A stretch of DNA of 64,000 nt from Actinomycetota bacterium (GTDB lineage: Bacteria; Actinomycetota; Geothermincolia; Fen-727; Anoxymicrobiaceae), in the NCBI GenBank assembly GCA_018831265.1, contig JAHJCO010000026.1:1-64000 (forward strand). Reading direction: 5' to 3'. The position numbers were made by a program, and so were the translations under genes. The notes under the pieces are model-generated. The model saw only the letters and a program-made list of their open reading frames with translations, had not been told where the DNA came from and did no database searches. Below, piece after piece: positions 55,829-59,782 of the stretch. Each line of letters opens with the position of its first letter. Position 1 is the first letter of the stretch.

Positions 55829-55934
55829 CGCCTTTTACGCCACGCGGGCGCCGGAGGCGGGGCCCAGAGAGCGATGATATAATCGGACTGTTGTGCTTAC
55901 CTGCTGAGACGGGGAAGCGTGAGTGAACGGCCAG

Positions 55935-56018
55935 ATGTCCGAAACTGACAAACCTGGACAACCACATAGACAGGGGCGGGAAAGCTCTCCCGGCGGGGAG
56001 GTTATCGCCTTGACCTGA
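55935..56018 (+). CDS. Candidate 27-codon leader peptide upstream of the Mg2+ operon
   Basis: ATG opens a short frame encoding MSETDKPGQPHRQG and onward to a TGA at 56016-56018, ending before the terminator. The peptide is acidic then Pro-rich at its N-terminus, as in the MgtL leader that senses Mg2+ by ribosome destabilisation. No good ribosome site precedes it. A second tiny frame (GTG 55919 to TGA 55948) overlaps. Speculative. Confidence 0.25.
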   Translation: MSETDKPGQPHRQGRESSPGGEVIALT

Positions 56019-56045
56019 TACGTGGGAGCGGGCGCGTGCTGGAAA

Positions 56046-56067
56046 GCCCTCTTCTGAGGGTTTTTTT
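56046..56067 (+). terminator. Attenuator terminator before the MgtE-like gene
   Basis: CCCTC-TTCT-GAGGG followed by seven T residues. It lies 24 bp before the ATG at 56092, too close to be the end of the previous gene alone (217 bp away), so it most likely controls read-through into the operon. Confidence 0.8.
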
Positions 56068-56091
56068 CGTGCCCGGAAAAGGGGGTGCCTG

Positions 56092-57894
56092 ATGCCGCAC
56101 CTCAGCACGATGCTGGGCAACAGGGTGGTCGATGCGACGGGCGCCGATGTCGGGCGCCTGTCGGACGTCGTCGTGGCTCCCGGGACCCGATTCCCCGTGG
56201 TGCGGGGCATCATGATCGACCAAAGACGGGCGACAACCAGGCGCCGCCTCTTCGTCCCATACGAGGACATCCGCTCACTGGAGGACCGCGAGGTCGTAAT
56301 CGATCGGATGGTGGAAGAAGCGGCCCCCCATCCAGGAGACGTCTTCCTGGCGCGAGACCTGCTGGACAAGCAGATAGTGGACATGGACGGCTACAAGATC
56401 GTCCGCGTCTCGGACATCAGGCTCTCGCGGACCGGGAGGCAGACCAGGGTCATCGGGGCGGACGTCGGCGGACTGGCGTTACTGCGGAGACTGGGCCTCG
56501 GCTCGCTGGCGGACAGGCTCTCCGGACGGGGAGCGGGATTCGGCGACTCCGTCGTGCCCTGGAACCTCGTGTCACCCGTCCAGCCGATGCCCTACGACGT
56601 CCGATTGCGCGTGCCGTACCGCGAGTACCTCGAGATACACCCCAGTGACATCGCGGACATCATAGAGCAGCTGGACGTCGACCAGAGGGCCAAGGTCCTC
56701 GCCCTCGTCGATGACCCCAAGGCCGCGGAGGTGCTTTCCCAGGTGCTGCCGGGAATGCGCCCGTCCGTGGCCGAGTCCATAAGCGACGAACGACTGTCCG
56801 ACCTGCTGGAGATAATGCCACCGGACGAGGCGGCCGACATCCTGGGCTCTCTGCCCAGGCGAAAGGCCGAGGCGCTGCTGTCCCTGATGGGGATTCGGGA
56901 GGCGTCGGTGGTCTCGGAGCTGCTAGGCTACGAGCCCCACACCGCCGGCGGAAGGATGACCACCGAGTTCGTGGCCATACCGTACTCCCTGAGCGCGGCG
57001 GAGGCTATCGATCACCTGAGGGTGATAGGGGAGGAGGCCGAGACCATCTACTACGTGTACGTGGTCGATTCGGAGGGCCACCTCTCGGGCGTGCTGTCGC
57101 TGCGGGACCTTCTTCGTGCCGGCTCCGGGAAGACGATCGGGGACCTGATGAGCCGCGACCTGATAACGTCGGAGCTCCAGGACGACCAGGAGTTGGTGGC
57201 CGACAGGCTGTCCCGGTACAACCTCCTGGCGCTGCCCGTGGTGGACGACGACCACGTCCTCAAGGGGATAGTGACCGTCGACGACGCCATAGACGTCATC
57301 CGCGAGGAGACGGGTGAGGATTACTCGCAGGTCACCGGGGTGCCGTTCGCCGGTGGGGGCACGCCGCTGGGGGGCGCGTCCGACGCACGCCGGTGGGCGG
57401 TCACCGCGATGACCTTCCTGGGGGGCATCGTGGCCACCGCGCTGTTCGGCGTCTTCAGAAGAGAGTTCGTCGCCGCGCTGGCGCTGGTCTACTTCATACC
57501 GCTGGCCTTGCGGGCCTCGCACGACGTATCGGTGTGGTCGCTCGCGGAGACCGTGGGGCTGCTTGGAGCCGGCAAGGCAAGGGGGCCGGTTGTGAGAAGG
57601 ACGTTCGCCCGCGAGTACCTGTATGCCCTGGCTGCCGCGTTGCTGATAAGCGTGCTGGGATTCACGGCAGGGCTGGTCTGGACCGGGTACAGCCGGTCCG
57701 CGCTCGCCGCCTCGGTAGGCCTTTTCGTTGGAATAAGCGCGGCGGGAGTGCTGGGAGCGCTGGTGCCGGTGGTGCTCTCACGGGTGAGGACGGACCCCGC
57801 CGTGGCGCCCGGGCGGCTGCTCGGCGTCCTGGTGATGGCGGCTTCCATGGTCTCTTTCCTGATCGTGAGCGGGCTGATGGTCGGAGCGTGGTGA
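56092..57894 (+). CDS. MgtE-like protein with two PRC barrels, MgtE_N, CBS pair and a degenerate transport domain
   Basis: 600 aa. Order: PRC barrel 1 (about 1-75), PRC barrel 2 (about 80-165), MgtE_N superhelix (about 180-280: IHPSDIADIIEQLD, MPPDEAADILGSLPRRKAEAL), CBS pair (about 285-410) and ~5 membrane helices. In MgtE channels a GGNAGxQ stretch and a TM5 aspartate line the pore. Here the matching places read IPLALRASHDVSVWS and LLGVLVMAASMVSF, so both are lost. It may sense Mg2+ without conducting it. ATG with GGGGGTG. NRAMP gene 12 bp downstream. Confidence 0.85.
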   Translation: MPHLSTMLGNRVVDATGADVGRLSDVVVAPGTRFPVVRGIMIDQRRATTRRRLFVPYEDIRSLEDREVVIDRMVEEAAPHPGDVFLARDLLDKQIVDMDGYKIVRVSDIRLSRTGRQTRVIGADVGGLALLRRLGLGSLADRLSGRGAGFGDSVVPWNLVSPVQPMPYDVRLRVPYREYLEIHPSDIADIIEQLDVDQRAKVLALVDDPKAAEVLSQVLPGMRPSVAESISDERLSDLLEIMPPDEAADILGSLPRRKAEALLSLMGIREASVVSELLGYEPHTAGGRMTTEFVAIPYSLSAAEAIDHLRVIGEEAETIYYVYVVDSEGHLSGVLSLRDLLRAGSGKTIGDLMSRDLITSELQDDQELVADRLSRYNLLALPVVDDDHVLKGIVTVDDAIDVIREETGEDYSQVTGVPFAGGGTPLGGASDARRWAVTAMTFLGGIVATALFGVFRREFVAALALVYFIPLALRASHDVSVWSLAETVGLLGAGKARGPVVRRTFAREYLYALAAALLISVLGFTAGLVWTGYSRSALAASVGLFVGISAAGVLGALVPVVLSRVRTDPAVAPGRLLGVLVMAASMVSFLIVSGLMVGAW

Positions 57895-57906
57895 CAGGGT
57901 AAGCAG

Positions 57907-59178
57907 ATGCAGAAGACAGTGAAGAGCCGCAGACTGACCAGGACCAACCTGCTGATGCTGCTGGGCGTGCTGGGGCCCGGCATCATCGTGGCCATGGTCG
58001 ACAACGACGCCGGCGGTATAACCACCTACTCGGTGGCCGGCGCGCGCTTCGGGTACTCGATCCTCTGGATACTGATCCCGACCGCGGTACTTCTCTTCAT
58101 GGTCCAGGAGATGAACGCGCGCATGGGGATCGTCACCGGCAAGGGCCTCGCCGCCCTCATACGCGAGCGCTTCTCATTCAGGCTGACCGCGGCCATCATG
58201 CTGGCGGTGCTCGTAGCCAACTTCGGCAACGCCGTATCCAACTTCGCGGGCATAGCTGCGAGCTCTCAGCTGTTCGGGTTGAACAAGTTCGTGGCCGTCC
58301 CCGTGGCGGCGGTCGGGATCTGGTTCGTCGTGCTCAAGGGGAGCTACAAGGCCGTGGAGAAGGTGTTCCTGCTGGTGAGCCTCGTCTACGTCGCCTACAT
58401 CATCTCGGCATTCCTCGCACACCCCGACTGGTCCGAGGTCGCCCGCGGAGCATTCGTGCCCAGCGGGCAGTTGAACGCCGCCTACGCGGTGATGGTGGTG
58501 ACCCTGGTGGGGACCACCATCGCGCCCTGGATGCAGTTCTACCAGCAGGCCTCGGTTGTGGACAAGGGGCTCAAGTCGGACCAGCTCTGGTTCGAGAGGA
58601 TCGACACCGGGATAGGGACGGTGCTTCTGACCGTGGCCGCCGCGGCCATCGTGATCTGCTGCGCGGCCGCGTTCTTCAACAAGCCGGGGGTCGGCGCGAC
58701 GCAGATAACCTCGGCAGAGCAGGCCGCCCAGGCGCTGGCGCCGGTCGCGGGCAAGTACGCCTCCTACCTGTTCGCCTTCGGCCTGCTCTGCGCTTCCATC
58801 TTCGCGGCGTCGATCCTGCCGCTCTCCACGGCCTACACCGTGTGCGAAGCGTTCGGCTGGGAGGCGGGAATCGATCGGACCTTCGCCGAGGCGCCGCGCT
58901 TCTACGGTGTCTACACCGCGTTCATCGCCGGGGGAGCCGCGTTCATCCTGGTACCGGGAATGCCGCTGATCACGGTGATGCTGCTGTCACAGACAGCGAA
59001 CGGGCTGCTTCTGCCGGTGGTGCTGACATGCATGCTCAAGGTCATCAGGGACAGGGATATCATGGGCGACCACGTCAACGGGGACGTCTACAATACGATC
59101 GCCTGGGCGGCGGTGGCGGTGCTCTACGTGCTGGATATCTGGCTGGTAGCCGCGACCTTGCTCGGGGCGGGGAGATGA
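57907..59178 (+). CDS. NRAMP-related Mg2+ transporter (NRMT-like, SLC11 family)
   Basis: 423 aa, about 11 membrane helices. The TM1 DPGN metal motif of NRAMP is replaced by DNDAG (residues 32-36, in VDNDAGGITTYS). The TM6 MPH motif is replaced by APW (206-208), removing the methionine that selects Mn2+/Fe2+. Loss of that methionine is the hallmark of NRAMP-related Mg2+ transporters described from Actinobacteria such as Eggerthella. Co-transcribed with the MgtE-like gene and a PRC protein. Confidence 0.88.
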   Translation: MQKTVKSRRLTRTNLLMLLGVLGPGIIVAMVDNDAGGITTYSVAGARFGYSILWILIPTAVLLFMVQEMNARMGIVTGKGLAALIRERFSFRLTAAIMLAVLVANFGNAVSNFAGIAASSQLFGLNKFVAVPVAAVGIWFVVLKGSYKAVEKVFLLVSLVYVAYIISAFLAHPDWSEVARGAFVPSGQLNAAYAVMVVTLVGTTIAPWMQFYQQASVVDKGLKSDQLWFERIDTGIGTVLLTVAAAAIVICCAAAFFNKPGVGATQITSAEQAAQALAPVAGKYASYLFAFGLLCASIFAASILPLSTAYTVCEAFGWEAGIDRTFAEAPRFYGVYTAFIAGGAAFILVPGMPLITVMLLSQTANGLLLPVVLTCMLKVIRDRDIMGDHVNGDVYNTIAWAAVAVLYVLDIWLVAATLLGAGR

Positions 59179-59191
59179 CAGGAGGCCGGCA

Positions 59192-59782
59192 TTGGATCCA
59201 GTAGAACCGATCGGGCTTCGACAGATATTGAAGCTCAAGGTGTTCGACTCCGACGGCAAGCACATAGGGCACGTCCAGGACCTGGCCATCGAGCGCCGAC
59301 TGGATGTACCGCGGGCGTGCTGCCTGGGAGTACACATGCTGTGGACGGACCACGTCGGGGATGTGAAGCTGGTGCGGAGGGTGGAGGACATTGTGGTACT
59401 GGTACCCTGGAGCCAGGTCGCCCGGTTCGACGAGGACGAGTTCGCCCTGGCCTCCGAGCACCTCGCGTTGCCGGTCGAGAGCGCGGGCGGGCGCTGGCTC
59501 CTGCGAGGGGACGTGTTGAACAAACAGATGGTCGATCCCCACGGAAACCGCATCCAGCGTGTCGACGACGTCCTGCTGGGCGCGTATGAAGGCGGCTTGC
59601 GAGTGGTGGGGCTCGAGGTGAGCAAGGGCCTGATGATAACCAGCTCGACCATGAGGCGCTACGTGGCCGTGCTGAGAAGGAAGCACTTCAGCAGGCAGGA
59701 TTCCGACGTCATCCCCTGGGAGGCCGTCTCCCGCATCGAGGAGGACGCCATAGTGCTGGGCGAGGAGGTCCGGCTTGGCTGA
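59192..59782 (+). CDS. Double PRC-barrel protein
   Basis: 196 aa. Two PRC units (about 8-85: LRQILKLKVFDSDGKHIGHV; about 100-190: LLRGDVLNKQMVDPHGNRI). The second resembles the N-terminal barrels of the MgtE-like protein (LARDLLDKQIVDMDGYKIV). Soluble, with no membrane helix. TTG start with AGGAGG 6 nt upstream, 13 bp after the transporter. It probably pairs with the MgtE-like protein as part of the Mg2+ module. Confidence 0.8.
   Translation: MDPVEPIGLRQILKLKVFDSDGKHIGHVQDLAIERRLDVPRACCLGVHMLWTDHVGDVKLVRRVEDIVVLVPWSQVARFDEDEFALASEHLALPVESAGGRWLLRGDVLNKQMVDPHGNRIQRVDDVLLGAYEGGLRVVGLEVSKGLMITSSTMRRYVAVLRRKHFSRQDSDVIPWEAVSRIEEDAIVLGEEVRLG

What the first reader, a model, noticed from the sequence alone, without database searches (positions are those of the whole stretch)
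56092..59782. MgtE homologue with a dead pore co-expressed with an NRMT Mg2+ transporter
The MgtE-like protein keeps the Mg2+-sensing MgtE_N and CBS domains and gains two PRC barrels, but has lost GGNAG-Q and the TM5 aspartate needed for conduction. The next gene is an NRAMP with DNDAG and APW in place of DPGN and MPH, the NRMT pattern. A double-PRC protein follows. I infer a repurposed MgtE sensor that gates or stabilises the NRMT, a sensor-transporter complex not described to my knowledge.
Basis: partly seen in the sequence, partly recalled or inferred. Interest (0 to 1): 0.66.

Follow-up and report, generated by a model that had tools for sequence, protein, structure and literature searches.

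The report
Pore-dead MgtE sensor paired with NRMT
A bacterial magnesium channel has lost its pore but kept its magnesium-sensing parts, and it travels with a different magnesium importer that it probably switches on and off; the pairing was noticed in 2014, but this membrane-embedded, pore-dead form, its spread and its RNA switch appear undescribed.

Summary
Window 56092-57894 encodes PRC-PRC-MgtE_N-CBS-CBS plus five TM helices of MgtE fold, without GGNxxxQ and without the TM5 aspartate (Asp432). The next gene is a genuine NRMT, followed by a double-PRC gene.

What seems new:
(1) In Actinomycetota this partner is a full-length, pore-dead MgtE. Asp432 is lost in 37/37 sequences. Mg2+-site acids E255, E258 and D259 are invariant, and the TM domain is under purifying selection.
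(2) It tracks NRMT: 28/28 genomes of the class, although on separate contigs in 18. The PRC module and NRMT also co-occur phylum-wide.
(3) In its clade the dead TM is trimmed to one helix (the Eggerthella-type partner) or replaced by a live MgtA-type pump.
(4) In five relatives the neighbouring NRAMP has also lost the metal-binding aspartate that is reported as universal.
(5) The operon has an unrecognised leader-peptide attenuator, conserved in 11/11 genomes of the order.

Best reading: a Mg2+-sensing, non-conducting regulatory subunit of NRMT. Physical interaction is inferred, not shown.

The parts
55878..55883 (+). TATAAT, possible -10 box of the operon promoter (no good -35)
   Evidence: read from the sequence; the consensus scan found no full promoter, so weak
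55935..56018 (+). leader ORF, 27 codons: MSETDKPGQPHRQGRESSPGGEVIALT
   Evidence: homologous ATG and a 27-31 codon ORF in 11/11 genomes of the order; divergence by codon position 0.28/0.34/0.51
55993..56004 (+). purine block, possible antiterminator strand, 21 nt before the leader stop
   Evidence: 7-9 bp complementarity to the terminator 5' arm in 11/11, -9.9 to -16.2 kcal/mol
56047..56067 (+). intrinsic terminator CCCTC-TTCT-GAGGG-T7, 24 nt before the MgtE-like start codon
   Evidence: sequence; conserved in all 11 leaders
56092..57894 (+). pore-dead MgtE-like protein: PRC-PRC-MgtE_N-CBS-CBS-plug helix-5 TM (600 aa)
56101..56583 (+). two PRC-barrel domains (aa 4-164)
   Evidence: Pfam PRC aa 4-74; second copy from match to the downstream PRC protein and model strands
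56635..57336 (+). MgtE_N, CBS pair and plug helix (aa 182-415), Mg2+-site acids retained except D226 to N
57385..57888 (+). degenerate MgtE TM domain (aa 432-599); R474 and D478 at filter positions 325 and 329, R575 for Pro425, M582 for Asp432
57907..59178 (+). NRMT, Nramp-related Mg2+ transporter (DAGG...TTIAPW)
   Evidence: 7qia E=7e-111; motif and tree
59192..59782 (+). double-PRC protein (PRC2), usual neighbour of Geothermincolia NRMTs with an intact site
   Evidence: Pfam PRC; beside NRMT in most relatives

Best explanation
The first gene encodes a former MgtE Mg2+ channel turned into a non-conducting, Mg2+-sensing membrane subunit. When cytosolic Mg2+ is high, the MgtE_N, CBS and plug-helix acids bind Mg2+ and the dimer compacts as in MgtE; the movement is passed, through the PRC domains and/or the dead TM bundle, to the NRMT importer and lowers its uptake. 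At low Mg2+ the sensor relaxes and NRMT works. Shown here: domain make-up, loss of the conduction residues, retention of the sensor residues, purifying selection on the TM part, tracking of NRMT. Inferred: direct contact, the sign of the effect, the role of PRC. In the window's order the operon is probably also controlled by a translation-coupled attenuator: a ribosome that finishes the leader ORF hides the antiterminator and transcription stops; early release favours read-through. That Mg2+ is its signal is a guess from the acidic leader peptide and the MgtL/MgtQ precedents.
For: Sensor acids: D91, D95, D247, D250, E216, E255, E258, D259 in 27/27 and D214 in 26/27, against Asp432 in 0/27; D432 (Mg1) mutation abolishes conduction and the cytosolic sites Mg2-Mg7 contribute to closure (PMC5882242). 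Own conserved TM signature: R325 27/27, E359 27/27, D329 and R425 24/27; TM dN/dS 0.11-0.21 in eight of nine pairs. MgtE fold by Foldseek (2zy9, 1.8e-25; cytosolic domain TM-score 0.85). Co-occurrence 28/28 in the class; 58 of 63 NRMT genomes have the PRC module versus 10 of 184 without NRMT, odds ratio 202 (not corrected for kinship). Adjacency in 95/111 NRMT-type loci but 1/7 DPxG NRAMPs. Two genomes fuse the same module to an MgtA-type pump (TIGR01524, 1077 bits), nested in the same clade (99/90).
Against: No contact data: no complex could be predicted or measured. NRMTs work without the partner: Ca_c0685 rescued without it, and co-expressing the A. capsulatum fragment did not improve rescue (PMC4072509); EleNRMT was purified alone. 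MgtE-like gene and NRMT are unlinked in 18/28 genomes of the class. Five relatives pair the protein with an NRAMP that lacks the binding Asp, which cannot easily be a regulated Mg2+ importer. Co-occurrence counts are phylogenetically dependent. No Rfam Mg2+ riboswitch in the window.
Confidence: 0.6

Rival explanations
1. It is a Mg2+-dependent regulator with another main output (cell envelope, another transporter or a signalling partner); proximity to NRMT is secondary.
For: The gene sits in a conserved cluster (FHA, MerR, MgtE-like, D-Ala-D-Ala carboxypeptidase, BFN nuclease, K+ channel) with or without NRMT. PRC-N-CBS proteins exist without NRMT in some Actinomycetota (10 genomes). One lineage carries it with an Asp-less NRAMP.
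Against: Class-wide co-occurrence with NRMT despite separate loci; tight adjacency across many phyla.
Confidence: 0.17
2. It heterodimerises with the genome's live MgtE and acts as its regulatory or dominant-negative partner.
For: MgtE is a dimer, and a 448-aa MgtE with intact GGN and Asp is in the same genome (L062).
Against: G011 has a live MgtE (L067) but neither the dead form nor NRMT, and G012 is alike by search: it tracks NRMT, not MgtE. Wide relatives sit next to NRMT.
Confidence: 0.08
3. It still conducts, with a re-made selectivity site (Asp/Glu at position 329).
For: Asn329 to Asp in 24/27 and Asp or Glu in 7 of the 10 outside-class sequences; Q333 and Pro425 kept in L229.
Against: Asp432 lost in all 37; an invariant Arg at 325 in the class and Arg425 in 24/27 put positive charge on the pore helices; several groups keep none of these residues.
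Confidence: 0.1
4. The TM domain is a decaying relic and only the cytosolic part matters, as in the soluble partners.
For: Soluble partners in other phyla lack TM; the Eggerthella-type partner keeps one helix.
Against: TM dN/dS 0.11-0.21 in most pairs, new invariant residues, plug-helix acids kept wherever TM is kept and lost where it is lost.
Confidence: 0.05

Closest known systems
NrmT-associated MgtE cytoplasmic-domain gene (Shin et al. 2014, PMC4072509)
   Same: Same neighbour relation to NRMT and the same MgtE_N-CBS sensor; feedback regulation already proposed there.
   Different: The 2014 report describes a fragment homologous only to the cytoplasmic domain and does not mention PRC or TM parts. 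Here the partner keeps five TM helices with a dead pore and all plug-helix acids.
MgtE Mg2+ channel (T. thermophilus MgtE, 2zy9)
   Same: Fold, domain order N-CBS-plug-TM, Mg2+-site acids.
   Different: GGNxxxQ, Pro425 and Asp432 lost; Arg and Asp in the filter region; two PRC domains in front.
EleNRMT (7qia, PMC8806188)
   Same: Window NRAMP has the same DxxG-TxxA site, Gln on helix 10, about 47% identity.
   Different: No difference in the binding-site signature. An E. lenta-like genome (NRMT 95.5% identical) has a one-TM partner next door.
MgtL/MgtQ-type leader peptides
   Same: Short upstream ORF with acidic residues near its start, upstream of Mg2+ transport genes (PMC8092293).
   Different: Unrelated sequence; control by a terminator/antiterminator is predicted only; Mg2+ response untested.

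Membership tests
NRMT (SLC11) | DxxG in helix 1 and TxxA/T in helix 6 | tested here: met
   NDAGG and TTIAPW in the window; 22/22 class sequences with Asp
NRMT (SLC11) | groups with characterised NRMTs | tested here: met
   7qia is by far the best PDB hit, 7e-111 against 3e-26 for the best MntH
NRMT (SLC11) | transports Mg2+ | not testable with these tools
   needs uptake assay; the A. capsulatum homologue rescued Mn2+ import instead
MgtE channel | MgtE_N and CBS with Mg2+-site acids | tested here: met
MgtE channel | Asp432 on TM5 | tested here: not met
   Met in the window, 0/27 in the class, 0/10 outside
MgtE channel | GGNxxxQ filter region on TM2 | tested here: not met
   SHDVSVW
MgtE channel | five-TM MgtE fold | tested here: met
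   AlphaFold model and Foldseek to 2zy9; pTM only 0.46, TM part less certain
NrmT-associated MgtE-like partner (Shin 2014) | gene with MgtE_N-CBS beside NRMT | tested here: met
Mg2+ attenuator leader | conserved leader ORF plus terminator and antiterminator | tested here: met
   11/11 genomes of the order
Mg2+ attenuator leader | responds to Mg2+ | not testable with these tools
   needs reporter assay
M-box riboswitch | Rfam RF00380 match upstream | tested here: not met
   none in the window; present before the soluble partner in L058 (141 bits)

The most novel reading that the evidence does not exclude
A pore-dead channel serves as a membrane-embedded regulatory subunit of an unrelated transporter fold (MgtE sensor on a LeuT-fold NRMT). 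In one sublineage both partners have lost their metal-binding residues and form a pseudo-transporter pair that senses, rather than moves, Mg2+. In the window's order a new leader-peptide attenuator controls the operon.
Probability: 0.35. Interest if true: 0.8.

Novelty: new variant of a known kind. Interest (0 to 1): 0.62.

Why it matters
How NRMT uptake is held in check is unknown, since it is not coupled to protons and Mg2+ must not overfill the cell. A conserved partner whose sensor residues are known from MgtE makes the question directly testable, including for an NRMT with a solved structure whose close relative has a one-TM partner next door. It is also a clear case of a channel recycled as a regulator, with intermediate states (five TM, one TM, none, pump fusion) still living. 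Automatic annotation calls some of these dead proteins 'magnesium transporter' (L044, 287 bits against a cut-off of 232.75), which misleads genome-based Mg2+ models.

Tried and rejected
One search used an out-of-frame query by mistake; only its statement that the class holds 31 genomes is used. Takeda 2014 is not held. A fused read-through of the two genes is in frame, but was not folded: the tool returns no coordinates or interface scores, so it could not test contact. Rfam, also at permissive threshold, gives nothing credible for the leader. The leader model finds no other copy beyond weak matches, so no regulon could be used to name its signal. The leader is absent before MgtE-like genes elsewhere in the class and before NRMT-PRC2 loci, so it is not the general link between the genes. 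One- and two-TM counts include hydropathy false positives in CBS domains; only L237, L239, L240 and L264 end in a true C-terminal helix. The Fisher value ignores kinship. The grouping of Asp-less NRAMPs with EleNRMT rests on a long branch. The fusion's place was unsure in the first tree (80/49) and clear in the second (99/90).

Full report
WHAT IS THERE. Three same-strand genes with gaps of 12 and 13 nt: a 600-aa protein (PRC, PRC, MgtE_N, CBS, CBS, TM), a 423-aa NRAMP and a 196-aa double-PRC protein. The lineage is Candidatus Geothermincolia (Actinomycetota), judged from named relatives such as Geothermincola and Solincola. The collection holds 31 genomes of this class, all of which were searched.

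THE MgtE-LIKE PROTEIN. The cytosolic part and TM domain align end to end with MgtE (TIGR00400 228.7 bits, just below its cut-off of 232.75; 2yvx 4e-49). An AlphaFold model (pLDDT 81.7, pTM 0.46) has the five MgtE helices and the plug helix; its best PDB match is MgtE. In T. thermophilus numbering, GGN-TG-NQ and Asp432 are gone, while Asp91, Asp95, Asp214, Glu216, Asp247, Asp250, Glu255, Glu258 and Asp259 are kept in 26-27 of 27 class members; Asp226 is Asn. Roles of these sites are from PMC5882242: Asp432 mutants do not conduct; the others bind the Mg2+ that closes the channel. The TM part is not drifting: it has its own invariant Arg325, mostly Asp329 and Arg425, and dN/dS of 0.11-0.21 in eight of nine pairs (the ninth, 0.34, is window against G001), against 0.04-0.14 for the sensor.

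THE NRAMP. It is an NRMT by motif, PDB match and tree.

HOW FAR THE PAIR GOES. In the class all 28 genomes with the long form have one NRAMP of this kind and the three without it have none. Adjacent in 10 (5 with intact NRMT and, where visible, PRC2; 5 with an Asp-less NRAMP and no PRC2), separate in 18, where NRMT usually sits beside PRC2. Across named genomes and the phylum, 95 of 111 NRMT-type loci have an MgtE_N-CBS partner within 1.5 kb, often with a 4-nt overlap or a gap under 30 nt, against 1 of 7 DPxG NRAMPs. Most partners are soluble PRC-PRC-N-CBS proteins of about 420 aa, the 'fragment' of Shin et al. 2014. Ten loci outside the class have the long form, all pore-dead, with E255, E258 and D259 kept in 10/10; by open-frame length about 15 genomes in four families outside the class have it. 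Soluble partners have lost the plug-helix acids.

EVOLUTION. On the N-CBS tree the long forms make one Actinomycetota clade (91/90), apart from soluble partners (97/85) and true MgtEs (90/69). Inside it a one-TM form (100/99), found next to NRMTs 83-95% identical to EleNRMT, and a fusion to an MgtA-type P-type ATPase (L059, L060) are nested. So within this clade the dead TM was probably ancestral, then trimmed or swapped for a live pump; this direction is an inference from nesting. The fusion is the best hint that the module controls Mg2+ importers.

A SECOND DEAD PARTNER. In G002, G007, G008, G009 and G010 the NRAMP beside the long form has Gly for the binding Asp (5/5, against Asp in 51/51 others), with Thr224, Ala227, Gln379 and Gly58 kept; they form one clade (100) at 55-76% mutual identity. 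The literature calls this Asp universal and D55A strongly impaired (PMC8806188). Whether they transport anything is open.

THE LEADER. Upstream of the operon, in 11/11 genomes of the order that carry the gene and nowhere else convincingly, lies a leader with a 27-31 codon ORF (start M-x-[DE]-[STN]-[DG]), a purine block 15-21 nt before its stop and a terminator 28-37 nt after it; the block can pair with the terminator's 5' arm. Codon third positions vary most. This looks like a translation-coupled attenuator. A Mg2+ link is suggested only by context and by MgtQ, where acidic codons 2 and 5 matter (PMC8092293). The soluble partner in L058 has an M-box riboswitch instead.

MECHANISM. See best explanation. 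Direct contact and sign of regulation are inferred. Known experiments show NRMT can work without the partner, so the partner would tune rather than enable.

VERDICT. Observation right; idea largely anticipated in 2014; the pore-dead membrane form, its breadth, its intermediates, the Asp-less partner and the attenuator are new to the searched literature, which covers only open-licence papers.

Noticed in passing
window 55878-56070: Leader ORF, antiterminator-like block and terminator before the MgtE-like gene, conserved in 11/11 genomes of the order that carry the gene; no Rfam family.
   Followed up: partly
L034:3026-4267, L036:9415-10653, L038:9103-10350, L039:10022-11263, L040:2375-3676: NRAMPs beside the pore-dead MgtE that lack the binding-site Asp (NGASG, VGASG or IGASG) reported as universal in SLC11, other site residues kept.
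   Followed up: partly
L059:3778-7731 and L060:3090-7043: 1317-aa fusion of PRC-PRC-MgtE_N-CBS to an MgtA-type Mg2+ P-type ATPase; found in two of 247 genomes.
   Followed up: partly
L237, L239, L240, L264: Partners next to NRMTs 83-95% identical to EleNRMT are PRC-PRC-N-CBS with a single C-terminal TM helix.
   Followed up: partly
L063:5317-6351 (own genome, contig C30): 344-aa MgtE relative without most of the N domain: ADSVGTQ instead of GGNxxxQ, but TM5 Asp kept; possibly another partly degenerate MgtE.
   Followed up: no
L044:8299-10107: Pore-dead protein scores above the NCBIfam TIGR00400 'magnesium transporter' cut-off (287 against 232.75), so automatic annotation would mislabel it.
   Followed up: yes
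L249:3531-4445: 304-aa PRC-containing protein without MgtE_N-CBS match, overlapping a DPxG NRAMP gene; an independent PRC-NRAMP pairing.
   Followed up: no
L058:8100-8276: M-box riboswitch directly before a soluble PRC-MgtE_N-CBS and NRMT operon in another actinomycete.
   Followed up: yes
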